Of a DNA stretch of 64,000 nucleotides, positions 6,557-59,679 are shown one piece after another. The notes under the pieces are model-generated. The model had not been told where the DNA came from. It saw nothing but the letters and a program-made list of their open reading frames with translations, and did no database searches. The translations under genes and the position numbers were made by a program. This DNA comes from a virus: positions 44,592 through 108,591 of IMG/VR virus record IMGVR_UViG_3300042923_001459. One strand, written 5' to 3'. The number at the start of each line of letters is the position of its first letter. The stretch's first letter is position 1.

Positions 6557-6574
6557 AAGGAGCCGAAGCTCCTT
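6557..6574 (-). terminator. Terminator with TTCG tetraloop
   Basis: Minus strand AAGGAGC TTCG GCTCCTT then a T run; overlaps the stop of the 6573 gene. Confidence 0.9.
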
Positions 6575-6947
6575 ATTCAAAACCATCTTTTAATTTAGCA
6601 ATTCTTGCTATTTCTACAAAAAGCTTTTTAAATTCATCAAAATCATAGAAAGTATATCTAGCACTGTGTGTTGAAGAATCATGATTGAAATGCGAAGTTT
6701 TAAAATTGGATTTATCTAAATACGATATTAAAGTTCTGTGATCATGTGCATGTTTCATTAAGTAAATAGAAAAGACCAATTTATCTTCATAACAAAACAA
6801 TTCAAACTCAAATATTTTATTTACATTAATTCGTAGATAGGTTAGTGTTTCATCACTGTGAAGTGTCTTCATCGTTACTGGAGCTCCACCAGTTAATTCT
6901 GCCATTACAAGAAATGCGCTTAGAAAATCCTCAAATTCATCCAACAT
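6573..6947 (-). CDS. Alpha/beta protein with N-terminal DAYIVMxEL-type helix (distant member of the 22-26 kb array)
   Basis: About 124 residues from the ATG at 6945-6947, which lies 8 bases after the upstream stop; a TTG start 39 bases earlier is also open. The N-terminus EFEDFLSAFLVMAELTGG aligns with MESFIVMKELTG of the gene at 23856, and the C-terminal helix (DEFKKLFVEIARIAK) matches the family end. It is thus a paralog of the array 15 kb away, sitting downstream of replication genes. Function unknown. Confidence 0.75.
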   Translation of the reverse strand: MLDEFEDFLSAFLVMAELTGGAPVTMKTLHSDETLTYLRINVNKIFEFELFCYEDKLVFSIYLMKHAHDHRTLISYLDKSNFKTSHFNHDSSTHSARYTFYDFDEFKKLFVEIARIAKLKDGFE

Positions 6948-6954
6948 TACAATA

Positions 6955-7689
6955 CTACTCTTTATATGCACCAACGAGTTTTTCAATTGCTTTTTTCCTC
7001 GCTTTCATAGATTCCAAATTATCTCTAAGCGTATCAAGCTTTCTTTGAGCCAAATTTACTTTATCTGGTTCAATTTCGTTATCAACGATAATTTTTTGAA
7101 TTTCAATTTCAACTTCTAACTTTGGAATACTTTTGGTTACGTCTTCTAATAAACCTTTTAAAATATAAATCTTTAATTCGTCCATGTTACTCACTTTTTC
7201 TTCGCCACCTTTTGGTAAATTACTTATTCTTTCAATAGTGCTGTTTTCAGAGTTGCGTTGAAACACATAGTGAGGTATTTTTTTAGCCTCATCTTTTTTT
7301 GGTTCAACTTTTTTCTTTTTTAACTCTTTTACAGGAACAACAATATCTTTTGTTTCTTCTTCTAAATCTAATTTTAGATTTATTTTTTCAATATCTAGAC
7401 TTTGTTCTTTAGCTATCACTCTTTCTAACCATTCATCATTGATTGGAGGAAGATCAAGCTCTGCAATAGGGGCATAAACTGTGTCTAGTGTTTTCAATTC
7501 TTCTTCGACGTTAAGTTCAACTTCCTTTTCAACAAATACTTCATCAACTGCAGATTCTTTTTCTGGCTGACTTTCTTCAATCGGAGCTTGTTGTATTGGC
7601 TGTGAGTCATTTATTAACTCAGATTCGCTCTGTTTCCTTGAAGAATTATTATTTAAACGTGGATTATAAGAATTTTTACCCTTGGCCAT
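6955..7689 (-). CDS. Acidic disordered protein with C-terminal coiled coil
   Basis: 244 residues. The first 130 are rich in Glu, Lys, Ser and Gln with no predicted fold; KELKKKKVEPKK is a basic patch near 130; residues 175-240 are a long heptad-like helix ending in a basic stretch. The start overlaps the end of the exonuclease gene by 14 bases, indicating translational coupling. It could be a scaffold or linker protein for the replication genes beside it, which is inference. Confidence 0.8.
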   Translation of the reverse strand: MAKGKNSYNPRLNNNSSRKQSESELINDSQPIQQAPIEESQPEKESAVDEVFVEKEVELNVEEELKTLDTVYAPIAELDLPPINDEWLERVIAKEQSLDIEKINLKLDLEEETKDIVVPVKELKKKKVEPKKDEAKKIPHYVFQRNSENSTIERISNLPKGGEEKVSNMDELKIYILKGLLEDVTKSIPKLEVEIEIQKIIVDNEIEPDKVNLAQRKLDTLRDNLESMKARKKAIEKLVGAYKE

Positions 7690-12744: not shown

Positions 12745-12765
12745 CCCATCTTTTAATGAGATGGG
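12745..12765 (-). terminator. Terminator of the 12776-14183 operon
   Basis: CCCATCT / AGATGGG stem followed on the minus strand by TATTTTTTT. Confidence 0.85.
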
Positions 12766-12775
12766 ATATCAGGAC

Positions 12776-13141: not shown

Positions 13142-13142
13142 A

Positions 13143-13412: not shown

Positions 13413-13427
13413 TTTTAACTTCCCTTC

Positions 13428-14183: not shown

Positions 14184-14200
14184 AACAATTCAACTCCAAA

Positions 14201-14497: not shown

Positions 14498-14565
14498 GAA
14501 CTACAACTCCTTTTTTTATATAGATAAAATAATTGATTTGCTTAATAATAACAAAAAAAATCAAA

Positions 14566-14586
14566 AACCCTACACAACGTAGGGTT
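14566..14586 (-). terminator. Terminator of the GNAT array
   Basis: AACCCTAC / GTAGGGTT stem followed by T-rich minus strand. Confidence 0.85.
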
Positions 14587-14596
14587 ATACATATTG

Positions 14597-17152
14597 TTAT
14601 ACAACTGATTTGTTCTTCTGCCTAAAGTCTGTTAACTTCGGTAAGAGCTCGTTATACCATTTTTCCTCATCTTGATGATTATAATCTCTCTTAGTATTGT
14701 TGAGCGTAATTTCGGGGAACCAACCCATAGCAACAGCCTTGTTAAATGTATATTCTGCTACTGGGTTTATGAATGTTCTACCAAGTCTCCAATTTTGATA
14801 TTGAGAATTGTATTCTTCTGAAAATGTTTTATATAAGAGCATAGCAACTCCATTTTTTCTATATTGCTCTTGTACTTCAACATAATTAATGTAGATGTAT
14901 TCATGTTCAGGATAGATTTCATACTTCATATCTCCAAGCATTTCTCCATCTCTAAAGATCTCAATTTTACGTCCTCTATTATTAATTTCTTTTTTCTGAA
15001 CATCAATTGGACCAACTGCAACTTCGGATGCAAATTTACGCAATCTGTAATCATTACCTTTAGCCCAATATTCAGGACCTTTATACTGTTCTGGCAACTT
15101 ATTACGTAAGTCATTCCAAACTTCGTCTGGGTTTGTTTTAAGGCTTTTATTATATCGATCTCTCTTCACATACTTATCATCTATTGAAGTTTCATTTATC
15201 CAACCTAAACTTACAGCTTTTCTAAATGCATATTCAGCTATTGGATTAATATAGTATCTAGAAACCGGCCAATCACTAAAGTTAGAATTGTAGATTTCAC
15301 CAAACTTTTTGTAAAGTAGTTGTCCAACACCATAACTTCTATATTCTTCCTTTACTTGGACTTCATCTACGTGAATAATATTGCTGCCAGGTGGTAAATC
15401 CCTAAGACTTCTATTGTTTTCGTGAATATATTTAGGGTTTTCAACATTGTAAAAAGCTGAAAAATACATATTTCCAATATTAATACCATTAGATAATTTA
15501 GCGTTTATTGAATAGTCAACTTGTTTTTCGGCACCAACATAATCTCCATCTTCTTCTGACTCAGTATAAGATAGTACAATGTTTCTCATATCAATTTCTG
15601 ACAAATCAGCTAATTTAAATAGTTTTTTCAATCTAGAACTACCTCTATACATTGGAGGAAGTTTCTTTCTCAAATCCTTCCAAAGCGTTTTATCTTTTTT
15701 ATCATAATTGCGCTTTAATTTATCATCATTTAAAGCCCATCCAGAAATCCACCCTAATGAAATAGCTTTACGATAAGAATATTCAGCTATAGGGTTATGA
15801 AAATCTACAGAAACTGGGAGACGATCAAATTGTTGTTGATAAATTTCACCAAATTTCTGAAGAAGTAATTGACCAATACCAAGGCTTTGATATTGTTCAG
15901 TAACTTTAATTAAATCGATATGAACTTTATCTCTTCCTGCATAGGCACTATTTGTATCATAAACGTAAGCTGTAAATCTTATGCTTCCCACTTCTTCACC
16001 ATTAAGTTGTGCATAAACCATGTGGGTGTCCATTGTTAAGCCATTGTCATAAGTTGAACTACCAATAGAACCTCCATCTTCAAGTATTATGCCAGACCTA
16101 ATATCGGTCACGCTTAGATCTGAAGCTAGTTTACGTAAATCTTTTTTCATACTAGCCTCCGGCCCTCTAACATGTTCTGGAAGTTTTTGTCTTAAATCAT
16201 TCCAAAGCGCTTTATTTTTTGTACTATAGTCACGAATTATCTTTTCTTCAGAAAGAGCCATATCTGGAACCCAGCCAAGAGATACTGCTTTTCTAAAGGA
16301 ATATTCAGCAACAGGATTTACAAATTGTCTACCAACTGCCCAACCATTAAATTGTTCAGTGTACATCTCACCAAATTTTTTGTAAAGCATTTGGCCTACG
16401 CCAGCTCCTTCAAAATATTGTTGCACATACAAAAACGAAACATATAATTCTGGTTCAGTATAATCTTTAGCTTCTTCTTTTGGAACATACTTTGAAAAAT
16501 CCAAATAACCAATTTGACTTCCAGCGTACATAGCGGAAATTTCATAACTAGATCTAAGTGTTTGTCCCCAGTCTTTTTCTTCACTAGGACCAGAAACTTC
16601 AAATTGAATACCTTGTCGTAAGTCAATTTTTTCATCATCACTTATGGCAATTTTTTTCAATCTTGAAAATCTACTAGCATGTAAATTTTCTGGTAATTTT
16701 TGTTTTAAGTCATTCCATTGTTGCTCTTTTTTATCATCATAACTTCTAGTTGTTCTCTCTGGAGTATAAGCTTGATTTGGTACCCAACCTTGATCTACTG
16801 CTTTTTTAAAAGAATATTCAGCAATGGGACTCTCAAAGTGTCTTTCAACTTCCCAGTCCATAAAGTTTTGGCTATACACTTCACCAAATTTTTTGTAAAG
16901 CATACCACTAATTCCAGTTCCACGATACTCAGATTCAACTTTGATATAAGCAAGGTATAGAATATCTTCCTCGTTGCCATTTTCATCTAGTTGCGAAACT
17001 TGATTGAAATCTAAAGCGCCAATTTCGCCTCCATTGTACATAGCTTCAATTCTATGCATAGTCATGTAGTATCCATCTTCAGGATCACTATCACTACCAA
17101 CATTAGGTGAGTAATCAATTCTAACTTTTCTAATGTCAAACTGATCAGACAT
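14597..17152 (-). CDS. Tandem GNAT acetyltransferase-like protein, five modules
   Basis: 851 residues made of five modules of about 170 residues. The acetyl-CoA loop (R/Q)xxGxG/A recurs at about 77 (YRGTGIS), 246 (YFEGAGVG), 421 (YQSLGIG), 604 (YRSYGVG) and 764 (YRKNGVA). Each is followed by a YKKFGEIY-like helix, NP(I/V)AEYSFRKAV, a GW segment and a linker WNDLRxKLPE..RGPE. Module 1 and 2 loops deviate from the strict motif. GNATs transfer acetyl groups to amines; whether these modules are active or serve as a repetitive scaffold is not decidable here. It follows the 17172 gene by 19 bases. Confidence 0.85.
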   Translation of the reverse strand: MSDQFDIRKVRIDYSPNVGSDSDPEDGYYMTMHRIEAMYNGGEIGALDFNQVSQLDENGNEEDILYLAYIKVESEYRGTGISGMLYKKFGEVYSQNFMDWEVERHFESPIAEYSFKKAVDQGWVPNQAYTPERTTRSYDDKKEQQWNDLKQKLPENLHASRFSRLKKIAISDDEKIDLRQGIQFEVSGPSEEKDWGQTLRSSYEISAMYAGSQIGYLDFSKYVPKEEAKDYTEPELYVSFLYVQQYFEGAGVGQMLYKKFGEMYTEQFNGWAVGRQFVNPVAEYSFRKAVSLGWVPDMALSEEKIIRDYSTKNKALWNDLRQKLPEHVRGPEASMKKDLRKLASDLSVTDIRSGIILEDGGSIGSSTYDNGLTMDTHMVYAQLNGEEVGSIRFTAYVYDTNSAYAGRDKVHIDLIKVTEQYQSLGIGQLLLQKFGEIYQQQFDRLPVSVDFHNPIAEYSYRKAISLGWISGWALNDDKLKRNYDKKDKTLWKDLRKKLPPMYRGSSRLKKLFKLADLSEIDMRNIVLSYTESEEDGDYVGAEKQVDYSINAKLSNGINIGNMYFSAFYNVENPKYIHENNRSLRDLPPGSNIIHVDEVQVKEEYRSYGVGQLLYKKFGEIYNSNFSDWPVSRYYINPIAEYAFRKAVSLGWINETSIDDKYVKRDRYNKSLKTNPDEVWNDLRNKLPEQYKGPEYWAKGNDYRLRKFASEVAVGPIDVQKKEINNRGRKIEIFRDGEMLGDMKYEIYPEHEYIYINYVEVQEQYRKNGVAMLLYKTFSEEYNSQYQNWRLGRTFINPVAEYTFNKAVAMGWFPEITLNNTKRDYNHQDEEKWYNELLPKLTDFRQKNKSVV

Positions 17153-17171
17153 TTATTACACCCTCTTTTGA

Positions 17172-17660
17172 TTAAGAATATTTAAGTTTTCTTTTTAGTC
17201 TTTTAGCACCTCTATATTGTTCAGGCACCTTTTCTCTTAAATCTTGCCATTGTTGTTTTTGTTGATCGTCGTAATTTCTATTTACGTTGTTTTCATCTAA
17301 GGCTGAAGATGGTATCAATCCACCAGAAATTAAATTTCTAAATGCTAATTCAAATTCTGGATCGTGAAAGTTTAAAATTACCTTCCAACCCGTGTAATTA
17401 GCTTCAAATTCCTTACCAAATTCATCCATTAACATTTCTTCTAAATCATAATCTCTGTATTTTTCACTAATAAGACATTCATCTACGGATAAAACACCTT
17501 TAGATGCTTCTGTAAATTCAACGTGACCAACTTCTTTGCCGTTATAGATAGACGAAATTCTATGATCTTTTGAACCAAAAGTACCTTGATGATCAAAATA
17601 AATTTGAGCTTGAAACTGTTCTATGTTTGACGGTGCTGCAACCTTTCTAAGTTTACTCAT
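17172..17660 (-). CDS. Single degenerate GNAT module
   Basis: 162 residues from the ATG at 17658-17660 (AGGGTGA upstream); a longer in-frame opening to 17777 overlaps the previous gene and lacks a site. The usual loop is YRDYDLEE, where both loop glycines are replaced by acidic residues, so acetyl-CoA binding is doubtful. The flanking HDPEFELAFRNLI and WQDLREKVPEQYRGAK segments show it is the same repeat type. It is sandwiched between two intact arrays. Confidence 0.85.
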   Translation of the reverse strand: MSKLRKVAAPSNIEQFQAQIYFDHQGTFGSKDHRISSIYNGKEVGHVEFTEASKGVLSVDECLISEKYRDYDLEEMLMDEFGKEFEANYTGWKVILNFHDPEFELAFRNLISGGLIPSSALDENNVNRNYDDQQKQQWQDLREKVPEQYRGAKRLKRKLKYS

Positions 17661-19815
17661 TTTTATCACCCTTATCCCTATAATCTTTTCTTTCAATACT
17701 TTTCTTAAACTTCTTTTTCTCTTTTGCTGGTAACCAATCAAATAAATCTTTAGCAATTTGTTTTTCATGTTCATCATATTGACGCGCTATTAAATCATCA
17801 TTATATGCAGTTTCAGGGATATTTCCCTTATCGACTTCTTCTTTAAATACATATTCTGCTATAGGGTTTGCAAAAACTTGAGCAACTGGCCAATCCATAA
17901 AATCTTGCTTGTAAATTTCTCCAAACTTCTCATATAATTTCTTGCCAATTCCATAACCTCTGTACTCACTATTCACAAGAACGTTGTTTACATATAACAT
18001 TTCATCATAATGCTTGTTTTCAAGAGAAGTATGAACATCTTTAGCTGTTACATTATGAAATTCTGAAAAGTGCATGTAACCAATTTGAGAACCATAATAA
18101 TCACAATAAATTTCGTGATCAACTACATGATCTGCTCCATTCTTGTTTTCTTCTCTTGGGATATTTTGAACATCAATTTCTATGTGATTCCATTCAATGT
18201 CTGGTTTATCATCTTTTTTTTCTTCACCATCATATGAGTCAGAAACATAATTAACTGCATTTTCTTTTTTGAGCAATCTTTTTGTCAATTTAGCCCAAGT
18301 CTCAGGGCCCTTTAAATTGTCTGGAAGTTTATTTCTTAAATCGGTTATTGTTTGTGAATCATAATTTTTATAATCCCTAGTGATCATTGGTTCAGTTAAT
18401 GCTGATTCTGGCACAAAACCTTTTGAAACTGAATTTCTAAAAGCGTATTCAGCTACTGGATTCATAAAATGCCTTTCAACAGGCCAACCATTAAACTTTT
18501 CACTATAAATTTCTCCAAATTTTTTGTAAATTTCATACGCTAGACCTTGATTTTGATATTTTGGATCAACCTCAAGTTGAATAATTTCAATATATTTTCC
18601 ATTAGTATCAGCAGTGAAGGCTAAGAATCCAGCGTGATCACCATTTACAAGCAAAGTAATGTCATTTGTTGAACTAGTTCCCCAATCTTCAAAGAAATAG
18701 GTTGTTTCAATATTTTGTTCCTCTGATTTTCTAATCATACGAAGTCTTTTAATTTTTGACCATGTTTCAGGACCTTGAACATGTTCTGGTAACTTATTGC
18801 GTAAATCTTTTGCTAGATTTCTTTCAGTATCGGTATATACTCTTGCAATGTCATCTTCTTGTAATGCTTCTTGGGGAACCCAACCTAATCCAACAGCTTT
18901 TCTAAATGAATATTCTGCTATAGGGTTAATAAAAAAACGTTTAACTTTTGTGCCCATATATTTTTGTGAGTAAATATTTCCAAATTCTTTATACAATAAT
19001 TGCCCAATTCCTAAATTTCGATATTTATCATCAACGTCTACTGAATCAATTTCAATATGATTATCGCTTCCGACTATTTTAAAGTCCATTTCTCCAACTT
19101 TTTGTCCATTCAATTTAGCGGTAATGTAATTATGATAATTCCAATTGGAGAATTCAAATTGTATATTTCTTAAATCAACTTTTTCTTCTTCAGCTGTTTT
19201 TAGAAGTTTAATTTTTTTCAGTCTTGATTGAATTTCTGGACCACGATATTGTTCTGGCAATTTTTGTCTTAAATCTTGCCAAAGTTGTGTTCTATTATCG
19301 TTTTCATCTAGTGGTTTATTGTATCCTCTATTGATATATTGTTCAGTTAACGCATTTTCACTAATTAATCCATTTGCAACCGCTTTTCTAAATGAATATT
19401 CTGCGACTGGATTTACAAAGTATCTAGCAACAGGCCAACCGTTGAATTGTTCATTGTAGATTTTTCCAAACTCTTCATATATCTTATAGCCAATTCCAGC
19501 CTGTCTATATTCTTCGTTTACTTCAACATTGTTTACATATAAAGCACGATCAACAATATTGTAGTCATCTGGACCTGGCTCTCTTTCCATCAATATCTCA
19601 TATGGAACGTTCTCAACATCTATGAAATCCATGTATCCAACTTGTGTTCCGCTTATTGTAGTAATTGTAATTTTATGTTGATTCATTGAGGTGACACCAA
19701 ATTCTGATTGAGCATCTGCGAATTCATCAGAAACTCTCACCATATGATTCACTGCTAGATTACGTAAATCATCACCTGTATCTGATGCTTTTTTTTCCAT
19801 CATCCTATAGTCCAT
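17653..19815 (-). CDS. Tandem GNAT acetyltransferase-like protein, four modules
   Basis: 720 residues with acetyl-CoA loops at about 103 (YRQAGIG), 265 (YRNLGIG), 420 (YQNQGLA) and 618 (YRGYGIG). All four fit (R/Q)xxGxG/A better than several modules of the 851-residue neighbour. Linkers end in KLPEQYRGPE, KLPEHVQGPE and KLPDNLKGPE. An acidic spacer of about 35 residues precedes module 4. The start follows GGCGGAGGAACA; it opens the three-gene GNAT operon. Its stop overlaps the next gene by 8 bases. Confidence 0.85.
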   Translation of the reverse strand: MDYRMMEKKASDTGDDLRNLAVNHMVRVSDEFADAQSEFGVTSMNQHKITITTISGTQVGYMDFIDVENVPYEILMEREPGPDDYNIVDRALYVNNVEVNEEYRQAGIGYKIYEEFGKIYNEQFNGWPVARYFVNPVAEYSFRKAVANGLISENALTEQYINRGYNKPLDENDNRTQLWQDLRQKLPEQYRGPEIQSRLKKIKLLKTAEEEKVDLRNIQFEFSNWNYHNYITAKLNGQKVGEMDFKIVGSDNHIEIDSVDVDDKYRNLGIGQLLYKEFGNIYSQKYMGTKVKRFFINPIAEYSFRKAVGLGWVPQEALQEDDIARVYTDTERNLAKDLRNKLPEHVQGPETWSKIKRLRMIRKSEEQNIETTYFFEDWGTSSTNDITLLVNGDHAGFLAFTADTNGKYIEIIQLEVDPKYQNQGLAYEIYKKFGEIYSEKFNGWPVERHFMNPVAEYAFRNSVSKGFVPESALTEPMITRDYKNYDSQTITDLRNKLPDNLKGPETWAKLTKRLLKKENAVNYVSDSYDGEEKKDDKPDIEWNHIEIDVQNIPREENKNGADHVVDHEIYCDYYGSQIGYMHFSEFHNVTAKDVHTSLENKHYDEMLYVNNVLVNSEYRGYGIGKKLYEKFGEIYKQDFMDWPVAQVFANPIAEYVFKEEVDKGNIPETAYNDDLIARQYDEHEKQIAKDLFDWLPAKEKKKFKKSIERKDYRDKGDKNE

Positions 19816-20673: not shown

Positions 20674-21033
20674 CTATTCTGATTTACTATCTAATAATTC
20701 CTTAAGTTGTGTAGGAAGTATCTTATGGCTCCATAGTTCTATAGCTCGTCTAACCGCCTTTGTCTTTAATTTATTCTCGGTTAAATGTATTTGTGTTTCC
20801 CATGAATTACCTAACATTGCTATTACTACTGGTGGTTTCTTTACTACAGTGCTGTACGTATGGATTAGTTCTCTTGTTGCGGGGAGGGCTTCTTCTCCCC
20901 CGGCCATTGTCTCATAGAGTCTTACTTCTACCAGTGCTATCTTGCCAAAAATCCATTCTGGATCCTGCTCTATTCTAACATCCATTTCATATTCATAGAA
21001 ATCGTTTATCTTCTCTAAGATGTTCTTTACCAT
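20674..21033 (-). CDS. Hypothetical protein next to the palindrome cluster
   Basis: 119 residues from the ATG at 21031-21033 (GAGGTGGAA upstream; a GTG two codons earlier is possible). Mostly helical, with DPEWIFGKIALVEVRLYE early and ELWSHKILPTQLKELLDS at the end. The stop lies a few bases from the CTATAGA cluster, so it could encode a protein acting on those sites, but no DNA-binding motif is evident. Confidence 0.75.
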   Translation of the reverse strand: MVKNILEKINDFYEYEMDVRIEQDPEWIFGKIALVEVRLYETMAGGEEALPATRELIHTYSTVVKKPPVVIAMLGNSWETQIHLTENKLKTKAVRRAIELWSHKILPTQLKELLDSKSE

Positions 21034-21039
21034 TTCCAC

Positions 21040-21980: not shown

Positions 21981-22439
21981 TTACCAATTTATTTTTTTTA
22001 ATTGTTTAAGTTTATCAAAATGTTTTTCTATGTCTGAAAGTTTTACATCCTTCTTTACGATAATTCCATTTATCTTTAAAAAGGCTGTTCTTTCTCCATA
22101 GAGCGGAAATTCTTCATAAGCTTCAAATTCTATAGCAAACGACTGATCAAATATTACAATTACTGTTTCGCGAAATTCACTTTCATTATTATTAAATAAA
22201 AATTCCACTAAACCGGGAACCATTTTATCCAACTCATCCTTAACGCTGTATTCACACCATGTTGTTTCATAAGCTAATTGAAAGTTCATTTTATTAAGAG
22301 CTATCAGTATTTCTTTGATATTCTCTGGGTGCGGTTCTGATTTTGTTCTAAAGTACGAAACACGTCCATATAACGGGTAATATTTGAAATCATAGCTTTT
22401 TATGAATTCTTCTCCGCTAGTTCTTATTAACTTTAACAT
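21981..22439 (-). CDS. Hypothetical protein at the end of the alpha/beta paralog array
   Basis: 152 residues from the ATG at 22437-22439 (AGGATAAAG upstream, 8 bases after the previous stop). It contains two similar halves, each with SYDFKYYPLYGRVSYFRT or EAYEEFPLYGERTAFLKI, suggesting an internal repeat. It lacks the DAYIVM-type helix of its neighbours. Function unknown. Confidence 0.8.
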   Translation of the reverse strand: MLKLIRTSGEEFIKSYDFKYYPLYGRVSYFRTKSEPHPENIKEILIALNKMNFQLAYETTWCEYSVKDELDKMVPGLVEFLFNNNESEFRETVIVIFDQSFAIEFEAYEEFPLYGERTAFLKINGIIVKKDVKLSDIEKHFDKLKQLKKINW

Positions 22440-22446
22440 CTTTATC

Positions 22447-22878
22447 CTACCTTTCATGGTCATAGATAGCTGGTTGCATATCTATAAGGAATTGTTGTAG
22501 ATGATCTGGACTATCTATAGATACTTCTATAAATCTTTCTCCCTGCTTACCGTCAAATGTGACCTTTCTTTTGTAATTCTTTAGTGGCGCGTATCTACTT
22601 GTGTTTAATTTAAAAGCTTTTTCATCTATTTCTGCAACTATTTCCTTTGTGAGCATATTATGTTTAAATCTGATGATTGTTTTCATTTGAAAACTAAATC
22701 GATTTTCCCTTATGTATTTTCTTATGCAGTATGTGTGCTTAAAGGAATTTACCGATGCTCTTTCAACTTTTGGTTTGTAATGGAATTTATCTGCCAGTCC
22801 TGCTAATTCATTAAGTATGAAAAATGCATCTATGGTTTCTTCCACCATTGTTCTTTTGGGATGTGTTTCTGTTATCAT
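22447..22878 (-). CDS. Alpha/beta paralog with N-terminal DAYIVM-type helix (family M)
   Basis: 143 residues. EETIDAFFILNELAGLADKF near the N-terminus is the shared helix. The middle is basic and beta-rich, the end is the usual helix (DHLQQFLIDMQPAIYDH). The start at 22876-22878 overlaps the upstream stop by 4 bases (ATGA); AGGTGG is the likely ribosome site. A CTATCTATAGATA palindrome lies inside the gene at 22511. Confidence 0.8.
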   Translation of the reverse strand: MITETHPKRTMVEETIDAFFILNELAGLADKFHYKPKVERASVNSFKHTYCIRKYIRENRFSFQMKTIIRFKHNMLTKEIVAEIDEKAFKLNTSRYAPLKNYKRKVTFDGKQGERFIEVSIDSPDHLQQFLIDMQPAIYDHER

Positions 22879-23348
22879 TCCTTTAGCCACCTACTTATAA
22901 TTGGTAAAATTTTCTGCAGATCTTCTATGCTTCTTAGTGTGCACACCATGATTCTTTTTCCCGGTTCCTTATTCTCATTATAAGATACGTCTGGCATAGT
23001 GAATCCAAATTGGGCCAAATCTGGTTCATTTTCAACAACTATACCTAATGGTTCCTCATTTATTAAGCAATCTATCATTGTAATGTACTCTCTGACACTA
23101 AAACCAGCCTGTAGAAAATTACTAAATCCCTCTCCACGTCTGATGCACCAAGAATGAGTATTATCATGTATCAATTGCCCACCGGTAATTTTTATATCTC
23201 TTGTCATAAGTTCAAGTACTCTATATGATTCCATAGTTTCATTGAAGTCTTTAATTAATTTATGATAGCAATTTACGTGAAACTCCCATGCTTCTTTCGA
23301 GCTTATAAAGTCGTTCAATAATGGTTGATCTATATTGTTTTCCATCAT
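22875..23348 (-). CDS. Alpha/beta paralog with N-terminal DAYIVM-type helix (family M)
   Basis: 157 residues, first gene of a unit driven from 23379. FNETMESYRVLELMTRDI (about 34-51) is the family helix; the start is extended by about 25 residues compared with others. C-terminal helix IEDLQKILPIISRWLKE is conserved. GAGGAGGATAA precedes ATGATG. Confidence 0.82.
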   Translation of the reverse strand: MMENNIDQPLLNDFISSKEAWEFHVNCYHKLIKDFNETMESYRVLELMTRDIKITGGQLIHDNTHSWCIRRGEGFSNFLQAGFSVREYITMIDCLINEEPLGIVVENEPDLAQFGFTMPDVSYNENKEPGKRIMVCTLRSIEDLQKILPIISRWLKE

Positions 23349-23378
23349 TTATCCTCCTCATTATATCCTTATATATAT

Positions 23379-23407
23379 ATTATATCACATTCTTTTCATT
23401 TTGTAAA
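23379..23407 (-). promoter_or_regulatory. Sigma-A type promoter, TTTACA-17-TATAAT
   Basis: Serves 22875-23348 and the two genes after it. The leftmost copy of the promoter type that fills the right half of the window; TGTGA precedes the -10 and TATATATAAGG follows. Confidence 0.95.
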
Positions 23408-23412
23408 CAAAA

Positions 23413-23433
23413 AAAGAAGGTTTACCCTTCTTT
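23413..23433 (-). terminator. Terminator after the 23452 gene
   Basis: AGAAGG / CCTTCT stem with GTAAAC-like loop then T7 on the minus strand, directly abutting the promoter at 23379. Confidence 0.8.
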
Positions 23434-23451
23434 ATCTAGGAATTGTTGATA

Positions 23452-23859
23452 TTAAATAATTTTGTCTATCACGCTTAAAAATATTTCAAATGATTTTGCA
23501 TCATACAACGTCCATATAACTGTGTTTCCAGCTACAGATATTTCGCTTTTACTATGTACATCGTAAATAGTTCGCGGAGTTATGTCATATTGTGTGTGCA
23601 TTTTTAGATCTTGATATTCTCTACTTGTCAGTAACTCATGCTCCATATAAATTCCATTTCTACTAACTACAATTTTTTGATCTTCCTCATATACAGAAAT
23701 GTCGTAAACTGTTCCACCTTTTTTTCTATGCAATGTGAATTTACCAATTTTTTTATCTGAAAGTACCTTTACCTCAACTGGGAATGGTTTGGTATCAGTA
23801 AGACATTTCATCACTATATAATTATCAAGTATTTCGTTAATTTCTTCAATTAATGTCAT
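23452..23859 (-). CDS. Alpha/beta paralog with N-terminal DAYIVM-type helix (family M)
   Basis: 135 residues. EEINEILDNYIVMKCLTDTK at residues 5-24 is a near-perfect copy of the helix. The beta region includes DKKIGKFTLHRKKGGTVYDI; the end is AKSFEIFLSVIDKII. The start overlaps the upstream stop by 4 bases. Confidence 0.85.
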   Translation of the reverse strand: MTLIEEINEILDNYIVMKCLTDTKPFPVEVKVLSDKKIGKFTLHRKKGGTVYDISVYEEDQKIVVSRNGIYMEHELLTSREYQDLKMHTQYDITPRTIYDVHSKSEISVAGNTVIWTLYDAKSFEIFLSVIDKII

Positions 23860-24248
23860 CTAAAGACCACCCATTCCTTCATAATCTGATTTAAGAATAT
23901 TGGAAGATGTTTTTCAGAAATATGAATTCTTATTGTCCTGCGTCCAACGCTGTAAGTATCATATTCCATTTTTCCAAAATGTTCATAATCACTTTCTATA
24001 ATCATCCCAACTTCGTTTTCATTAAATTGTGCGATATAACCCAACGTATCATATCTATAAAATACTCTTAAGGTGTATTCAAACGATTTTCTACCTTTTA
24101 CATAATACGAAATCATGCAGCCTTGCGCATCACGCCACACATCTAATGCAAAAATACATCTACCTGTTAATTCCTTCATAACTATGAAACTTTCCATAGT
24201 ATCGTGTAATTCTTGCATTATTAGGTTATCATTTAACAATACACTCAT
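23856..24248 (-). CDS. Alpha/beta paralog with N-terminal DAYIVM-type helix (family M)
   Basis: 130 residues and probably the most typical member: MQELHDTMESFIVMKELTGR at the N-terminus, a beta-rich middle with paired aromatic residues, and the C-terminal helix HLPIFLNQIMKEW. Start overlaps the upstream stop (ATGA), so this run of genes is translationally coupled. Confidence 0.85.
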   Translation of the reverse strand: MSVLLNDNLIMQELHDTMESFIVMKELTGRCIFALDVWRDAQGCMISYYVKGRKSFEYTLRVFYRYDTLGYIAQFNENEVGMIIESDYEHFGKMEYDTYSVGRRTIRIHISEKHLPIFLNQIMKEWVVFR

Positions 24249-24676
24249 GACATTTCCTCAATTGAAAAAGAATCAATTTTTGACAATACATCATGAAACA
24301 TTTCAAACATTCTATCTATATCTTTAGGTGTTACAGCTTCTTCGAACAGACCATACTTATCGCCTATATATTTTCTGAAATCTTGATTTTGACCGCAAGA
24401 CCAAATCCTTGTAATTTTGTCAAATGACCAATCATCATTGTAAAGTACTAACATATTAATTTGTAAAAGATTTTCAAATTCTCTACAATAAAATGATATG
24501 CAATCCCTAAAAAAACTATCTGAATGAGAAACCGCTACTTCCCAATCTGCCATTTGTGCAGTAACCAACAAGATTTCCAACTTATCAACGAAATCATTAA
24601 GTGGTATTTTACTAGTGCTTAAATGATCATATTTTATAGGAGTCCATGTTCTATCAACTTCATATTCATAACTCAT
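24245..24676 (-). CDS. Alpha/beta paralog, divergent family M member
   Basis: 143 residues. FVDKLEILLVTAQMADWEVA holds the helix position, but the central YIVM is replaced by LLVT. The C-terminal KDIDRMFEMFHDVLSKI is retained. Cysteines are scattered and do not form a zinc pattern. Confidence 0.8.
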   Translation of the reverse strand: MSYEYEVDRTWTPIKYDHLSTSKIPLNDFVDKLEILLVTAQMADWEVAVSHSDSFFRDCISFYCREFENLLQINMLVLYNDDWSFDKITRIWSCGQNQDFRKYIGDKYGLFEEAVTPKDIDRMFEMFHDVLSKIDSFSIEEMS

Positions 24677-24688
24677 AACTAAACCCCT

Positions 24689-25138
24689 TCACCGAATGTA
24701 TTTCATGATTTTTGAAATTAATTCCATTAGTTGATCAAAATTCTCAAAGCTTACCGATAATCTCTTTAGACCCTTAACATTAGTAAATGTATGATTTTCT
24801 CTAGTAATATTTATCCAGTTGTATTCACTGAATTTATTTTCAATACTAACGCCAATTTTTCTTTCATCTATTGAAAAATTAAGAATCCCTGCATGTACCT
24901 CTATCATTATAAAGTAAGAACTTAACATTGGTGTCATTGATCCATTATTATAAATCATCCATCTTTTCATCATTGCACTCTTATCCTTGCGTATATAAAG
25001 TAGCTTCTGAGTTGATAGCGCTCGGTTTACGTTGAGGGCATCCAAAAGTTCATCAATTTGTTCTTCCAATGTGACCCTCTCATTTCTGCTTATTTTTAAT
25101 TTGAATGAAGGTACTTTGCCATTTTTCCATTGTCCCAT
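24689..25138 (-). CDS. Alpha/beta paralog, divergent family M member
   Basis: About 149 residues from the ATG at 25136-25138 (GGGAGAG upstream). An alternative GTG at 25177 would start inside a GC-rich hairpin and is unlikely. TLEEQIDELLDALNVNRAL fills the helix position with a weaker match. Ends DQLMELISKIMKYIR as in the family. Confidence 0.75.
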   Translation of the reverse strand: MGQWKNGKVPSFKLKISRNERVTLEEQIDELLDALNVNRALSTQKLLYIRKDKSAMMKRWMIYNNGSMTPMLSSYFIMIEVHAGILNFSIDERKIGVSIENKFSEYNWINITRENHTFTNVKGLKRLSVSFENFDQLMELISKIMKYIR

Positions 25139-25140
25139 TT

Positions 25141-25175
25141 TCCCCACTCTCCCAGCCGAAGGCTCGGGGCTCGGC
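25141..25175 (-). promoter_or_regulatory. GC-rich hairpin in the leader of the 24689 unit
   Basis: GCCGAGCCCCGAGCC / AGCCGAAGGCT-type pairing just before the start codon; far more GC-rich than its surroundings and reminiscent of the GNAT leader patch at 19960. Confidence 0.5.
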
Positions 25176-25243
25176 ACTCACGAATCTATCTTCAAGCTCT
25201 CTGTAGAATTCCCTATAGTATTAAAACATTATGTTACATATTT

Positions 25244-25249
25244 ATTATA
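25244..25249 (-). promoter_or_regulatory. Promoter-like -10, second copy of the GNAT-leader type
   Basis: Minus strand AACTTAGTATAATAAATATG then TAAC, matching the site at 20096 at all but two of 24 positions. It would drive 24689 and the coupled genes after it. Confidence 0.5.
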
Positions 25250-25258
25250 CTAAGTTTC

Positions 25259-25675
25259 TTACAACAAATAGAGAGGTTGAACTTTGACTAGAATGTCGTA
25301 CACATCGCTAGGCTTATTTAGTTCGAAGAGGAATTCCCGTTCAAATCTCTCTAAAATCTCACCGATAGAACCAGCATAGTGAGCGTGCTTCCTCCCGCCT
25401 TCAACAAATTTATATCTTTGCTTCAGCCATTCTATATTCTCTTCTCCAACGCTAAACTGGCTTACTTTCGTGTATATGCTACCATTAGGCCGTATGAAAT
25501 CAAAAGACAATGAGTCTCTTTGCCGTGATTTTGTCAATCTAATTGAAAAACTATATTTTGAGCTTTTTGGATCTGGGTACTCCGTAATTCTAACTGGTCT
25601 ATTGTCAGTTAGGTTCCATCCTACAATGTAGGTTTCCATTTCCTCTCTAATTTGTGCAATCATGCTTTTAGCCAT
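25259..25675 (-). CDS. Alpha/beta paralog with N-terminal DAYIVM-type helix (family M)
   Basis: 138 residues. IREEMETYIVGWNLTDNRPV is the helix; the following region has alternating Ser/Arg strands (SSKYSFSIRLTKSRQRDSL) and the end is SDVYDILVKVQPLYLL. The ATG shares bases with the upstream TAA (TAATG). Confidence 0.83.
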   Translation of the reverse strand: MAKSMIAQIREEMETYIVGWNLTDNRPVRITEYPDPKSSKYSFSIRLTKSRQRDSLSFDFIRPNGSIYTKVSQFSVGEENIEWLKQRYKFVEGGRKHAHYAGSIGEILERFEREFLFELNKPSDVYDILVKVQPLYLL

Positions 25676-26151
25676 TACAACTTCTCCACCCTTAGGAAAA
25701 TTTTAAAGAATTCTCTTATTTCATTAGGATCTTCAATCTTCATGAAGAAATCTCTATAGCCAGGTTTTTGTGATTGTCTATTGACTCTAAGATTAGCTTT
25801 ATTCATGATTGCTCTACATTTAGTTTTTAGGTTGATGCCAAAATGATCTTCTATTAGCCATAATTCTGATTCTACTCCATAGCGGTATCTATTCACCCTA
25901 ATTTTCATGCAAGCTTGCCAATTTTGATAATATGATGGATGAGAACCTATGTAGTATGTTGAATCCTTCTGGTCTCCATGAATGTCACTTTTTGTCCAAC
26001 AAACTTTCCCTTTCAAACCAGAAAGTTCTCTCAAAACATTTATTGAATCTACTTCTTCTTGTATGACTAATTCTAAGTTTGCACGCAATTCTCGTGTTTG
26101 TAGAATGTACTTATCTAGCTCTTCTGGTGTCACCTTATTCACCTCATACAT
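25675..26151 (-). CDS. Alpha/beta paralog with DAYIVM-type helix after an N-terminal extension (family M)
   Basis: 158 residues. LELVIQEEVDSINVLRELSG at about 26-45 is the helix, preceded by a polar 25-residue extension. Ends in NEIREFFKIFLRVEKL. It follows the terminator at 26186; transcription is by read-through or a weak local promoter. Confidence 0.82.
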   Translation of the reverse strand: MYEVNKVTPEELDKYILQTRELRANLELVIQEEVDSINVLRELSGLKGKVCWTKSDIHGDQKDSTYYIGSHPSYYQNWQACMKIRVNRYRYGVESELWLIEDHFGINLKTKCRAIMNKANLRVNRQSQKPGYRDFFMKIEDPNEIREFFKIFLRVEKL

Positions 26152-26185
26152 ATTTTATCCTTTTATCTATTTTATGCAATAAAAA

Positions 26186-26205
26186 AACCAGTTTTTACAC
26201 TGGTT
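26186..26205 (-). terminator. Terminator between the zinc-finger array and the alpha/beta array
   Basis: AACCAG / CTGGTT stem, then T7 on the minus strand. Confidence 0.85.
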
Positions 26206-26220
26206 GATTAATATTTAACA

Positions 26221-26652
26221 TTACTTTCTCAACTTAGGTTCATCTCCAGCATCACAATATGTGCAATTGGATTTATCGCGGTCATATTTCAATGTATAAC
26301 TTTCAGTTATCCCGAAAGCAAGTGGTCCTTTATTTTTCTTTATTGTAAGATTAATTTTGTATCCCGGTAATTCGTTGTCTTCTGATAATTCCTTTGCTAC
26401 AATCAATCCATCAATGTAATCATCAATATGAATCCCTAAATCCATAGCTTCTCCTAAAGCCTTATCCCTACATTTCTCACAAGTTATACCATCATGCGAC
26501 GTTTTATTATGCCATTTACATAGCTTACACATATTAGCCTCATCCCATAGCTTTATATTTGTAAAATCTATTGGTTTTGAACCCAAAATACACCGTATAT
26601 ATTCCTCTTCCCTTGAAAAACTTTCACATGGGTCATTTAATTTCATTTGCAC
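26221..26652 (-). CDS. Zinc-finger paralog with internal DAYIVM-type helix (family Z, last and longest)
   Basis: 143 residues. Zinc site CKLC and CEKC (about 41-63), helix motif DDYIDGLIVAKELSED (about 77-92), then an extra 50 residues of beta-like sequence ending with CTYC, so this member bridges the architecture of both arrays. GTG start with AGGAG 10 bases upstream; overlaps the previous gene by 20 bases. Confidence 0.8.
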   Translation of the reverse strand: MQMKLNDPCESFSREEEYIRCILGSKPIDFTNIKLWDEANMCKLCKWHNKTSHDGITCEKCRDKALGEAMDLGIHIDDYIDGLIVAKELSEDNELPGYKINLTIKKNKGPLAFGITESYTLKYDRDKSNCTYCDAGDEPKLRK

Positions 26653-26857
26653 TTTTCTTCAGCTCCTCAGCTACAACATATGCATCCGTAAAATCCTTCA
26701 GACTTATGTTTGTTACCTTTTCCCATTCCTTAAATATTTCCTCTAGACATTCAGAACATACTGTTGTCGTTGTGTGATCACCAGCCAAACTCGATATAAA
26801 TGCTGTCGTGCAACATTGACAACTATACGCATACCATTTGCCATCGGATTCATTCAT
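26633..26857 (-). CDS. C4 zinc-finger paralog with C-terminal DAYIVM-type helix (family Z)
   Basis: 74 residues. CQCC and CSEC zinc pairs at about 14-37, then a helix and SLKDFTDAYVVAEELKK at 53-69. The start overlaps the upstream stop. Confidence 0.85.
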   Translation of the reverse strand: MNESDGKWYAYSCQCCTTAFISSLAGDHTTTTVCSECLEEIFKEWEKVTNISLKDFTDAYVVAEELKKSANEIK

Positions 26858-27050
26858 TTGAAATCTCCCTCATTACGATGTATGCATCTATAAATTCAAA
26901 AATGTTAGTCCTATCGTCAATATCATTTTTATACCATGCTGCTCTTATTTCTGCAAAACATGGCTCGCATAAACTCATTGCCAATTGGCTTTTACAACGC
27001 AATCCCCATACAAATCTTATATTGCAATTTCTACATGTACAAGCATACAT
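26850..27050 (-). CDS. C4 zinc-finger paralog with C-terminal DAYIVM-type helix (family Z)
   Basis: 66 residues. CRNC and CEPC zinc pairs, then NIFEFIDAYIVMREISNE at the very end: the best match to the shared motif. Start and stop overlap both neighbours. Confidence 0.85.
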   Translation of the reverse strand: MYACTCRNCNIRFVWGLRCKSQLAMSLCEPCFAEIRAAWYKNDIDDRTNIFEFIDAYIVMREISNE

Positions 27051-27292
27051 TATGATTCACCCAATTCCTCAGTTGCAATATAAGCATCCATGAATTCATC
27101 GTAATCCAACAATTCTCTATTCTCTGCACATGCTTCATACCAAGCTGCTAAAGCATTTTCTTGACATGTTATGCAGATTTTCTTTTCTCGTATTCCCCAA
27201 TCGTATTTTGAAAATTTTTTGCATATCTTACAATCAAACGCTTTTTCCATAATTTTATTTAATTCTTCTATATTTTTCTTTTTATCAATCAT
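27050..27292 (-). CDS. C4 zinc-finger paralog with C-terminal DAYIVM-type helix (family Z)
   Basis: 80 residues. CKIC and CITC pairs with a lysine-rich first 15 residues; ends YDEFMDAYIATEELGES. Coupled to neighbours by one- and four-base overlaps. Confidence 0.85.
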   Translation of the reverse strand: MIDKKKNIEELNKIMEKAFDCKICKKFSKYDWGIREKKICITCQENALAAWYEACAENRELLDYDEFMDAYIATEELGES

Positions 27293-27639
27293 TTTGCTTC
27301 TATCGACCTACCTTCCGCACCAGACATTTCATTCATAACTTCAATGGCGTCCACCAAATCCTGTATCGTGCTATCACTATACCGCGGATTTGTCGCTATT
27401 ACATTCTCCAGCTCTGCGTAGCAGTCGCGACAAATTTTATTGAGCTTATAGCTTTTCTTATCGCGGAATCCAACTAAGCACCTGCACGTTTTGCATTCTG
27501 GTGGAACTGCACTTTGCAGATGCTCTATCATTTTATCCGTTAAGATTCTTTCAATTTTCTTATGAACTTCCTTTTCGACTCGTCGTTTTTCCTTCCAATC
27601 CACTATCGCATTTCTAATGCGTTTTAACATTTTCCTCAC
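27289..27639 (-). CDS. C4 zinc-finger paralog with C-terminal DAYIVM-type helix (family Z)
   Basis: 116 residues with a 40-residue basic N-terminal extension. CKTC and CRDC pairs, then IQDLVDAIEVMNEMSG near the end, followed by a short tail. Confidence 0.85.
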   Translation of the reverse strand: MRKMLKRIRNAIVDWKEKRRVEKEVHKKIERILTDKMIEHLQSAVPPECKTCRCLVGFRDKKSYKLNKICRDCYAELENVIATNPRYSDSTIQDLVDAIEVMNEMSGAEGRSIEAK

Positions 27640-27652
27640 CCGCCAATTGTAT

Positions 27653-27898
27653 TTATTCTGCTAATTCATTCATTGTATCTATTGCATCTACTACATCTAA
27701 AACCGTCATATCAACTTGTGCTTTTTCCAATTCAAATTTGATATTTTTATAACAACTCGTACATGTTTTACACTCCATGTACGCCTTTGCATTTGAATTT
27801 GCCAATCCACCGCATGTCTTACAATTTCCAAGTAGTTGGCGTTTCTTATTTCTTATCTTTTTAGCCTTTAGTTTTTGAAAGAAATTGTCTAATTCCAT
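27653..27898 (-). CDS. C4 zinc-finger paralog with C-terminal DAYIVM-type helix (family Z)
   Basis: 81 residues. CKTCGG and CKTCTSC, an extra CxxC; ends VLDVVDAIDTMNELAE. Basic N-terminus. Confidence 0.85.
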   Translation of the reverse strand: MELDNFFQKLKAKKIRNKKRQLLGNCKTCGGLANSNAKAYMECKTCTSCYKNIKFELEKAQVDMTVLDVVDAIDTMNELAE

Positions 27899-27899
27899 T

Positions 27900-28115
27900 T
27901 TACGACCTCGCCAATTGTCTTATTAGTTTTTTACCTTCAACATATTCTTCTAGACCATACCCATCGCCGGCGATCGAATTTCTAAATTCTTCTTCACACT
28001 TTTTCTTACATTTTTTGCATAACTCTAAATCTAAATCATCTACCAACATGTACCCACATAATTGACAACAACCGTCAATTGTTTTTATCGTATAGCCAGT
28101 CAGATCTATTTTCAT
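27900..28115 (-). CDS. C4 zinc-finger paralog with C-terminal helix motif (family Z)
   Basis: 71 residues. CQLC and CKKC pairs; ends GLEEYVEGKKLIRQLARS, the divergent KKL form of the motif. GGGAGTTGCTAGT precedes ATG, the same ribosome site as the next gene upstream. Confidence 0.85.
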   Translation of the reverse strand: MKIDLTGYTIKTIDGCCQLCGYMLVDDLDLELCKKCKKKCEEEFRNSIAGDGYGLEEYVEGKKLIRQLARS

Positions 28116-28116
28116 A

Positions 28117-28332
28117 CTAGCAACTCCCTAACATATTAGCTAATTTTTTATTTTCAATATATTCTTCAAAATCAACCTCCGCACCTTCAGCTCTTAAACT
28201 TTTACATTCTATTTGACATTTAGTTGTACAAACCAAACATAAATCAAGGTTTATTACCACAATTGCTCTTTTTTCGCAAAATACACACATATTATGAACC
28301 ATTTCTACTTTTCCGCTAAATGTTATTTTCAT
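28117..28332 (-). CDS. C4 zinc-finger paralog with C-terminal helix motif (family Z)
   Basis: 71 residues from the ATG at 28330-28332 (GGGAGTTGTTAGT upstream). CVFC and CLVC pairs; ends DFEEYIENKKLANMLGSC. Confidence 0.85.
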   Translation of the reverse strand: MKITFSGKVEMVHNMCVFCEKRAIVVINLDLCLVCTTKCQIECKSLRAEGAEVDFEEYIENKKLANMLGSC

Positions 28333-28333
28333 A

Positions 28334-28582
28334 CTAACAACTCCCAAGTGCGTTTGCTAATTTTTTATATTCTATGTACTCCCTAATCCCCAGTGCTTCC
28401 CCTTGCCACACTAACTCCTCTATGTCGAATGTCGCTTTTATGTAACAGCTCGTACACAGTTTATGTCCATTTCTCTCATCATACTCCTTACTGCATAACT
28501 CACATCTTATCTTATAATAATGTGCGTTCATTGCTACAAATTCCCACCACGTTTTATTCCCTAACCCTCCGCGAACTGTCAC
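28334..28582 (-). CDS. C4 zinc-finger paralog with C-terminal helix motif (family Z)
   Basis: Up to 82 residues from a GTG with GAGGG 8 bases upstream; an ATG at codon 18 would give a length closer to its siblings. CELC and CTSC pairs, then YIKATFDIEELVWQGEALGI shared almost exactly with the next gene, and REYIEYKKLANALGSC. Confidence 0.8.
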   Translation of the reverse strand: MTVRGGLGNKTWWEFVAMNAHYYKIRCELCSKEYDERNGHKLCTSCYIKATFDIEELVWQGEALGIREYIEYKKLANALGSC

Positions 28583-28828
28583 CTACCATTCCCTCCCTAA
28601 TTCGTTAGCTATTTTCTTATATTCGATATACTCGCTAATCTCCACAACCTCCCCTTGCCATATTAACTTCTCTATGTCGAATGTTGCTTTTATGTAACAA
28701 TTTTCGCATAGTTTGTATATGTTAGTTGGCATCAAATGCTTCTTTCCACATATTTCACACTTGTACTTTTTGTTCAAATAGTCTAATACTTCTTGTTGTA
28801 ACTCCTGTATTTCCTTCGTGGTTGCCAT
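28583..28828 (-). CDS. C4 zinc-finger paralog with C-terminal helix motif (family Z)
   Basis: 81 residues from the ATG at 28826-28828, chosen for TTGGGGGGATAAG upstream. CEIC and CENC pairs; shares YIKATFDIEKLIWQGE with its neighbour, the clearest sign of recent tandem duplication; ends SEYIEYKKIANELGREW. Confidence 0.85.
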   Translation of the reverse strand: MATTKEIQELQQEVLDYLNKKYKCEICGKKHLMPTNIYKLCENCYIKATFDIEKLIWQGEVVEISEYIEYKKIANELGREW

Positions 28829-28951
28829 CTTATCCCCCCAAGTGTCAGCGTATTTTACTGTCAACTTTTTGCCTTCAATTTTTTTCCAGAAATTTTTTAA
28901 CAACCCTTATGTCCAATCCTATTTTTGCTTAATTTTTTCTCTAGAAATTTT

Positions 28952-29253: not shown

Positions 29254-29282
29254 ATTATATCACATTAACGTTCTTTTGTAAA
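29254..29282 (-). promoter_or_regulatory. Promoter of the zinc-finger operon
   Basis: TTTACA-17-TATAAT with TGTGA; the transcript would cover 28952 down to 26221. Confidence 0.95.
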
Positions 29283-59244: not shown

Positions 59245-59679
59245 CTAGCTTGTCATAGCTACCATGACGATATAAGATTCAATATTTTCTAAGAATGCTA
59301 ATCCCTTCTTGAGGTTCTCCTCATATTGTTTAATCTTCTCTTCTGGTAGCATATTATATCGATGTCCAAGCGACCATTCAATATCCATGCAACCAAGCAT
59401 ATGACAATCATCATCCATAGAAGTATTGTGAGAGCCCCAAACGTTAATACCCCAGACTGTTTTACCTGCTCCCCACTCGCGAGGTTTTCTACCATGCCAG
59501 CCGCTCATATAAACATCTGGTGAACCAGGTTTGCTATAGCTCCATGTAGCTTCAGCTGAAGCTACTCCGGAATCGAGTTTGTAACCTTTATCTCTCATAA
59601 TCTTATGAGCTTTCTTTAAGAAATCTTCCGAAAGTAATGTAACTCTTGCCATTGAAGGGTGAATGTAACCTGTTCCCAT
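59245..59679 (-). CDS. Hypothetical protein ending in a DAYIVM-type helix
   Basis: 144 residues. The body is Gly/Trp-rich beta (SGWHGRKPREWGAGKTVWGI, NVWGSHNTSMDDDCHMLGCM). The last residues, ENIESYIVMVAMTS, match the shared helix of the 22-29 kb arrays. Unknown function. Confidence 0.83.
   Translation of the reverse strand: MGTGYIHPSMARVTLLSEDFLKKAHKIMRDKGYKLDSGVASAEATWSYSKPGSPDVYMSGWHGRKPREWGAGKTVWGINVWGSHNTSMDDDCHMLGCMDIEWSLGHRYNMLPEEKIKQYEENLKKGLAFLENIESYIVMVAMTS

What the first reader, a model, noticed from the sequence alone, without database searches (positions are those of the whole stretch)
21981..28828. Two adjacent paralog arrays share one short helix motif in different architectures
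About nine genes (22447-26151) place a motif like MESFIVMKELTG near the N-terminus before an alpha/beta domain, and ten genes (26221-28828) place a motif like FIDAYIVMREIS at the C-terminus behind a zinc finger. Consensus is roughly D-A-Y-I-V-M-x-E-L. The only sensible reason for one helix at opposite ends of unrelated small proteins in adjacent operons is a shared partner or a shared assembly. I know of no described phage system like this.
Basis: partly seen in the sequence, partly recalled or inferred. Interest (0 to 1): 0.88.

Follow-up and report, generated by a model that had tools for sequence, protein, structure and literature searches.

The report
Shared end-helix across jumbo-phage early genes
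In a giant virus of bacteria related to Bacillus phage G, two neighbouring clusters of small early genes encode different kinds of protein that carry the same short helix at one end, which suggests, but does not prove, that many different small proteins plug into one common partner.

Summary
The window belongs to a relative of Bacillus phage G. Eight genes (22447-26151) carry a 15-residue helix near the N-terminus before an alpha/beta body; ten (26221-28903) carry a related helix near the C-terminus behind a four-cysteine zinc finger. A profile from the N-array alone finds the helix at the expected place in six of the ten zinc-finger proteins. Profile-profile comparison aligns only those 15 columns (E=5e-4; reversed decoy 0.8). 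All 18 copies share acidic positions 2 and 5 and Leu/Met/Ile-13 on one helix face. Outside the arrays the helix recurs at protein ends in phage G and this phage, but hardly in nine more distant relatives. In phage G (gp670, gp671, gp674) and a third relative the same locus, at the distal end of the early-promoter region, holds smaller versions. Part of the C-array signal is confounded: codons for residues 11-15 overlap the next gene's ribosome-binding site, but columns 1-10 alone still give significant, correctly placed hits in three proteins. Best reading: a portable docking helix on early host-takeover proteins. The partner is unknown and no complex could be tested. Phage G's large zinc-ribbon array is already published; I found no report of the shared end-helix.

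The parts
22447..22890 (-). N-type gene, helix residues 17-31 EETIDAFFILNELAG
   Evidence: ORF; PSSM seed
22875..23348 (-). N-type gene, helix residues 36-50 NETMESYRVLELMTR; strong SD AGGAGG; first gene after promoter 23379-23407
23452..23859 (-). N-type gene, helix residues 8-22 NEILDNYIVMKCLTD
23856..24248 (-). N-type gene, helix residues 15-29 HDTMESFIVMKELTG; AlphaFold2 model H-EEE-h-EE-H (mean pLDDT 62.6, pTM 0.52)
24245..24676 (-). N-type gene, degenerate helix residues 30-44 VDKLEILLVTAQMAD
24689..25177 (-). N-type gene, helix residues 42-56 DELLDALNVNRALST (true start may be downstream)
25259..25675 (-). N-type gene, helix residues 10-24 REEMETYIVGWNLTD
25675..26151 (-). N-type gene, helix residues 31-45 QEEVDSINVLRELSG
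26186..26205 (-). terminator-like hairpin with T tail between the two arrays
   Evidence: consensus match only
26221..26652 (-). C-type gene with extended tail: zinc finger, helix residues 77-91 DDYIDGLIVAKELSE, then 52 further residues
   Evidence: the tail's likeness to the N-type body is not significant
26633..26857 (-). C-type gene, helix residues 54-68 KDFTDAYVVAEELKK
26850..27050 (-). C-type gene, helix residues 51-65 FEFIDAYIVMREISN; AlphaFold2: hairpin + helices, motif helix H50-64 pLDDT ~88, pTM 0.64
27050..27292 (-). C-type gene, helix residues 65-79 DEFMDAYIATEELGE
27289..27639 (-). C-type gene, helix residues 93-107 QDLVDAIEVMNEMSG (best N-PSSM hit, 23.5 bits)
27653..27898 (-). C-type gene, helix residues 67-81 LDVVDAIDTMNELAE
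27900..28115 (-). C-type gene, divergent helix residues 56-70 EEYVEGKKLIRQLAR
28117..28347 (-). C-type gene, divergent helix residues 61-75 EEYIENKKLANMLGS (start probably ATG 28332)
28334..28582 (-). C-type gene, divergent helix residues 67-81 REYIEYKKLANALGS
28583..28903 (-). C-type gene, divergent helix residues 90-104 SEYIEYKKIANELGR (start probably ATG 28828)
29254..29282 (-). early promoter TTTACA-N14-TGnTATAAT upstream of the C-array; no further copy until 23407
23379..23407 (-). early promoter upstream of the last N-type genes, preceded by terminator-like hairpin 23433-23413
6573..6986 (-). isolated N-type gene, helix residues 19-33 EDFLSAFLVMAELTG
   Evidence: E 7e-5 to the N-array HMM
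59245..59679 (-). unrelated 144-aa protein ending exactly with the helix (LENIESYIVMVAMTS, residues 130-144)

Best explanation
Shown: a 15-residue helix with a conserved face (acid-2, acid-5, small-6, aliphatic-9, Leu/Met/Ile-13, small-14) sits at or near one end of two otherwise unlike families of small phage proteins encoded side by side. It also sits at the ends of further proteins in this phage and in phage G. Inferred from promoter sequence: the arrays are early genes. Inferred: the helix is a portable docking plug. Each small protein is made early in infection, inserts its terminal helix into the same groove of one hub (a phage or host protein not yet identified), and leaves its fast-diverging body (alpha/beta domain or treble-clef-like zinc finger) free to hold a different target. 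Gene duplication at the distal end of the early region keeps adding bodies to the same plug.
For: The N-only PSSM finds the helix in 6/10 C proteins and hhalign aligns only those columns. The helix is better conserved than the bodies: mean BLOSUM 1.55 vs 0.37 in the N-array; 1.46 vs -0.08 in the C-array without Cys. The face 2-5-9-13 is kept in 18, 18, 16 and 18 of 18 copies, while positions 7, 8 and 10 change by subfamily. Outside the arrays, terminal copies are enriched in phage G plus this phage against nine more distant relatives: N-end 14/881 vs 2/2226, p 1e-6; C-end 7/881 vs 1/2226, p 9e-4. Copies in phage G are terminal in 17 of 26 cases, expected 7. The two bodies differ in predicted fold. 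The same locus at the end of the early-promoter region holds related genes in three phages.
Against: No partner is known and no complex was modelled. In the low-confidence N-type model the helix is alpha-1 of the domain, so it could simply be part of the fold. Four of the ten C-array helices do not match the N-PSSM on their own. C-array residues 11-15 overlap the next gene's ribosome-binding site, which can by itself favour Glu/Gly there. I found no homologue outside phage G relatives to test co-inheritance with a hub. Early expression is inferred from promoter sequence only.
Confidence: 0.42

Rival explanations
1. Module shuffling without a shared partner: neighbouring arrays exchanged or split a zinc-finger/helix/alpha-beta gene. 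The helix is now a structural element of each protein (alpha-1 of the alpha/beta domain; closing helix of the zinc finger) and marks common descent only.
For: In 26221-26652, the last C-type gene before the N-array, the helix is internal and followed by further sequence. In the N-type model the helix is the first helix of the domain. In phage G, gp444-474 fuse another N-terminal domain to a zinc ribbon.
Against: The tail of 26221-26652 is not significantly like N-type bodies (59 of 500 random segments score as well). The helix also ends unrelated proteins (59245-59679, phage G gp168). The conserved face includes two acids, unusual for a purely buried helix.
Confidence: 0.27
2. The arrays bind each other: the helix is a dimerisation or helix-swap element, so C-type proteins pair with N-type proteins (or among themselves) and the shared receptor is the alpha/beta domain itself.
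For: The arrays are adjacent; only one consensus promoter (29254-29282) lies upstream of the C-array and the first N-type genes, with a terminator-like hairpin between. The same C-then-N order occurs in phage G gp670-gp671. The best PDB match of the weak N-type model is a type III secretion chaperone, a class I know to dimerise (own knowledge).
Against: Isolated N-type genes exist without a zinc-finger neighbour of this family (6573-6986; phage G gp41, gp100, gp140). No complex was modelled.
Confidence: 0.19
3. Convergence plus a coding constraint: amphipathic end helices resemble each other, and in the C-array the codons for residues 11-15 are held by the next gene's Shine-Dalgarno sequence (GAG GAG = Glu-Glu, GGG AG = Gly-Ser/Arg).
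For: Ribosome-binding sequences lie inside the motif codons of several C-array genes.
Against: With columns 1-10 only, all six DAY-type proteins still hit at the right place, three with p<=0.001. Control phages lack the enrichment. N-array copies are not next to a start site.
Confidence: 0.08
4. Head-targeting tag like the T4 capsid-targeting sequence: the helix loads small variable proteins into the capsid for ejection.
For: A conserved end-peptide on variable small bodies is formally alike (T4 analogy, own knowledge; literature hits).
Against: The genes sit in the region of 67 early-type promoters, not with head genes. The tag occurs at both ends, whereas the T4 tag is N-terminal and cleaved (own knowledge).
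Confidence: 0.04

Closest known systems
Phage G zinc-ribbon expansion (about 35 copies; Iyer et al. 2021, PMC7824862; [quoted passage not shown] 2017, PMC5646251)
   Same: Tandem array of small four-cysteine zinc-finger proteins with a C-terminal helix in the same phage clade; followed downstream by N-type genes in phage G (gp475-497). About 21 members lie in this record at 214-19654, outside the window (hhalign E 3e-31).
   Different: The window C-array lacks the YWKENDRYL end-helix; its profile link to that family is weak and limited to the zinc finger (E 0.004-0.01). Its clear phage G relative is the single gene gp670 (E 3.5e-6).
Type III secretion chaperone / YbjN (TY-chaperone) fold
   Same: The N-type model has helix-3 strands-short helix-2 strands-helix order; top PDB Foldseek hit is SycT (2bsh_B, prob 0.66, E 0.31). 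TY-chaperones were described in phage-related conflict systems (PMC9503650).
   Different: Not significant, weak model, no sequence link to Pfam or PDB families.
T4 internal proteins with capsid-targeting sequence
   Same: Constant end-peptide on variable small bodies.
   Different: Here the peptide is at either end, lies in early-promoter operons, and there is no sign of cleavage.
F-box-type adaptor families (analogy only)
   Same: One docking module, many diverging target-binding bodies.
   Different: No sequence relation; hub unknown.

Membership tests
Phage G YWKENDRYL zinc-ribbon family (gp444-474) | Four-cysteine zinc finger | tested here: met
   All 10 C-array genes have C-x2-C...C-x2-C
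Phage G YWKENDRYL zinc-ribbon family (gp444-474) | Conserved C-terminal [YF]WKENDRYLxKIL helix | tested here: not met
   C-array ends in the DAYIVMxEL/EYIEYKKLANALG helix; hhalign aligns only the zinc finger
TY-chaperone / type III secretion chaperone fold | Alpha-beta(3)-alpha-beta(2)-alpha topology | tested here: inconclusive
   Model order agrees but pLDDT 62.6; SycT E 0.31
TY-chaperone / type III secretion chaperone fold | Sequence-profile link to CesT/YbjN families | tested here: not met
   48 members, no such Pfam hit; profile of 48 against PDB sequences finds none
T4 capsid-targeting sequence proteins | Targeting peptide at the N-terminus only | tested here: not met
   Helix occurs at or near the C-terminus in 9 of the 10 C-type genes and internally in one
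T4 capsid-targeting sequence proteins | Protein found in the virion, tag removed by prohead protease | not testable with these tools
   Phage G virion proteome paper not held
ClpX C4 zinc-finger domain | Match to PF06689 | tested here: not met
   No C-array member hits it at E<=1; the separate gene 12776-13159 does weakly (E 4e-4, below the curated cut-off)

The most novel reading that the evidence does not exclude
Phage G-like jumbo phages use one portable terminal helix as a common plug, carried at either end of dozens of structurally unrelated early proteins, so that a single hub protein in the infected cell is loaded with many interchangeable effector bodies: a phage counterpart of multi-adaptor systems, encoded in expandable arrays at a fixed early locus.
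Probability: 0.33. Interest if true: 0.82.

Novelty: new variant of a known kind. Interest (0 to 1): 0.6.

Why it matters
Jumbo phages carry hundreds of small genes of unknown function. A shared end-helix links many of them in two phages into one testable group, makes their unknown partner findable by a single pull-down, and shows that very divergent early proteins that look unrelated (N-type bodies are under 25% identical) belong to recognisable families. If a hub exists, it would name one target through which a giant phage takes over its host.

Tried and rejected
Close-relative searches of IMG/VR for one N-type and one C-type gene and tblastn against 50,697 phages found no relatives. Pfam, PHROG, NCBIfam and PDB sequence searches gave no credible family. 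ClpX zinc-domain mimicry was considered and dropped. The C-type fold search in PDB was empty. The idea that 26221-26652 is a zinc finger fused to an N-type body was tested and is not significant. An iterated HMM of the C family drifted into general zinc ribbons and was not used as evidence. Searching nine distant relatives with the array profiles gave nothing at the array level, so they serve as controls. The end-helix of the YWKENDRYL family was compared and is not the same motif.
Full report
WHAT THE WINDOW IS. The window is bases 44592-108591 of a 108.6 kb virus record. Its large terminase is 78% identical to that of Bacillus phage G, and gene order from the thymidylate kinase to the GNAT-repeat proteins matches phage G gp678-694.

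THE OBSERVATION. Eight minus-strand genes (22447-26151) share an N-terminal helix before a divergent body, and ten (26221-28903) share four cysteines and a helix at or near the C-terminus. The gene at 21981-22463 has no copy. A PSSM made from seven N-array helices finds its best match at exactly the predicted C-terminal place in six of ten C-array proteins. Four C-array proteins are among the top six of 188 non-seed genes (p 6e-5). The reverse test works for most N-array genes. hhalign of the two arrays aligns only the 15 helix columns, E=5e-4, reversed decoy 0.8; about 28 pairs were compared, so a corrected value is about 0.015. Full-length HMMs alone give only E~0.1-0.2. The four genes 27900-28903 carry a divergent form (EYIEYKKLANALG) that joins only by within-family alignment.

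ANATOMY OF THE HELIX. In all 18 copies positions 2 and 5 are acidic and 13 is Leu/Met/Ile; 9 is aliphatic in 16 and 14 is small in 17. Positions 2, 5, 9 and 13 lie on one face, while 7, 8 and 10 vary by subfamily. The register of the four divergent copies depends on the MAFFT alignment. The helix is better conserved than the bodies. AlphaFold2 gives a C-type hairpin plus helices with a confident motif helix (pTM 0.64) and an N-type helix-3 strands-helix-2 strands-helix order at low confidence (pLDDT 62.6, pTM 0.52).

A CONFOUNDER. In several C-array genes the codons for residues 11-15 also hold the next gene's ribosome-binding sequence, which by itself favours Glu-Glu or Gly-Ser/Arg there. With columns 1-10 only, all six DAY-type proteins still hit at the right place, three of them with shuffle p<=0.001 and ranks 2, 3 and 5 of 188. 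The link is therefore weaker than it first looks, but it is not produced by that constraint.

BEYOND THE ARRAYS. With the 18 array genes removed, the helix appears in the first 45 residues of 14 of 881 genes of phage G and this record, against 2 of 2226 in nine more distant relatives (p 1e-6), and in the last 21 residues of 7 against 1 (p 9e-4); shuffled ends give 0.9 and 0.5. Phage G hits are terminal 17 times of 26, expected 7. Bearers include isolated N-type genes (window 6573-6986; phage G gp41, gp100, gp140, gp520) and unrelated bodies that end with it (window 59245-59679; phage G gp168). In the viral structure library the three best matches of the N-type model are phage G gp278, gp485 and gp322 (prob 0.95-0.98, E 0.08-0.18); gp485 heads a phage G array of similar genes.

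THE LOCUS. Phage G has gp670 (C-type, E 3.5e-6), then gp671 and gp674 (N-type-like, weak), between a gp665-type gene and gp677, which matches window 20674-21039. A third phage (G005) has a run of about five N-type-like genes at 9334-11619 in the same place; one is significant by HMM, the others are assigned by position and appearance only. A promoter TTTACA-N14-TGnTATAAT occurs 67 times in the window (0.12 expected), 66 of them on the minus strand, between 23379 and 63708. In all three phages the last copies of this stretch lie just upstream of these genes. In the window, one promoter (29254-29282) precedes the ten C-type and the first six N-type genes, with a terminator-like hairpin at 26186-26205 between the arrays. 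Early expression is inferred from this, not measured.

KNOWN WORK. The phage G zinc-ribbon expansion and its tandem array are published (PMC7824862, PMC5646251). This record holds about 21 members of that family outside the window, but the window C-array is a different family. The paper searches found nothing on the shared end-helix.

MECHANISM. Best reading, 0.42: a portable docking helix on early proteins, one unknown hub, many bodies. Rivals: structural helix spread by module shuffling (0.27), mutual N-C assembly (0.19), convergence plus coding constraint (0.08), capsid targeting (0.04). Shown: the motif, its statistics, its locus. Inferred: early timing, docking, hub.

Noticed in passing
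window 23379-63708, minus strand: 67 copies of an extended -10 promoter TTTACA-N14-TGnTATAAT, about one per small gene (0.12 expected by chance); a conserved early-promoter module also seen in phage G and relative G005.
   Followed up: partly
record G000:C1 214-19654 (outside the window; L003, L004): About 21 tandem and scattered zinc-ribbon genes ending in [YF]WKENDRYLxKIL, the same family as the published phage G gp444-474 expansion but without its N-terminal domain; N-type-like genes lie next to some of them.
   Followed up: partly
window 14597-19815: Large proteins made of several repeated GNAT acetyltransferase domains (851 and 720 aa), beside a shorter one (17172-17777); phage G and G005 have single shorter versions at the same place.
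   Followed up: no
window 12776-13159: Small protein with a ClpX-type C4 zinc finger (PF06689 E 4e-4, below cut-off), conserved in phage G (gp683) and G005.
   Followed up: partly
window 26221-28903: Ribosome-binding sequences of successive C-array genes lie inside the codons for the C-terminal helix of the gene before.
   Followed up: yes
window 35209-35604, 41289-41690, 51890-52447, 54769-55188, 56522-57220: Five paralogues of a gp665-like protein (N-terminal 'NYxVxxEIxKLFxLKxxGxKAExLI'), also repeated in G005.
   Followed up: no
phage G gp563 (417026-417790): Repeat protein of about ten 'LSEDFIREFxxxVxW' units, a pattern I recall from giant viruses of eukaryotes (recollection, not tested).
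   Followed up: no
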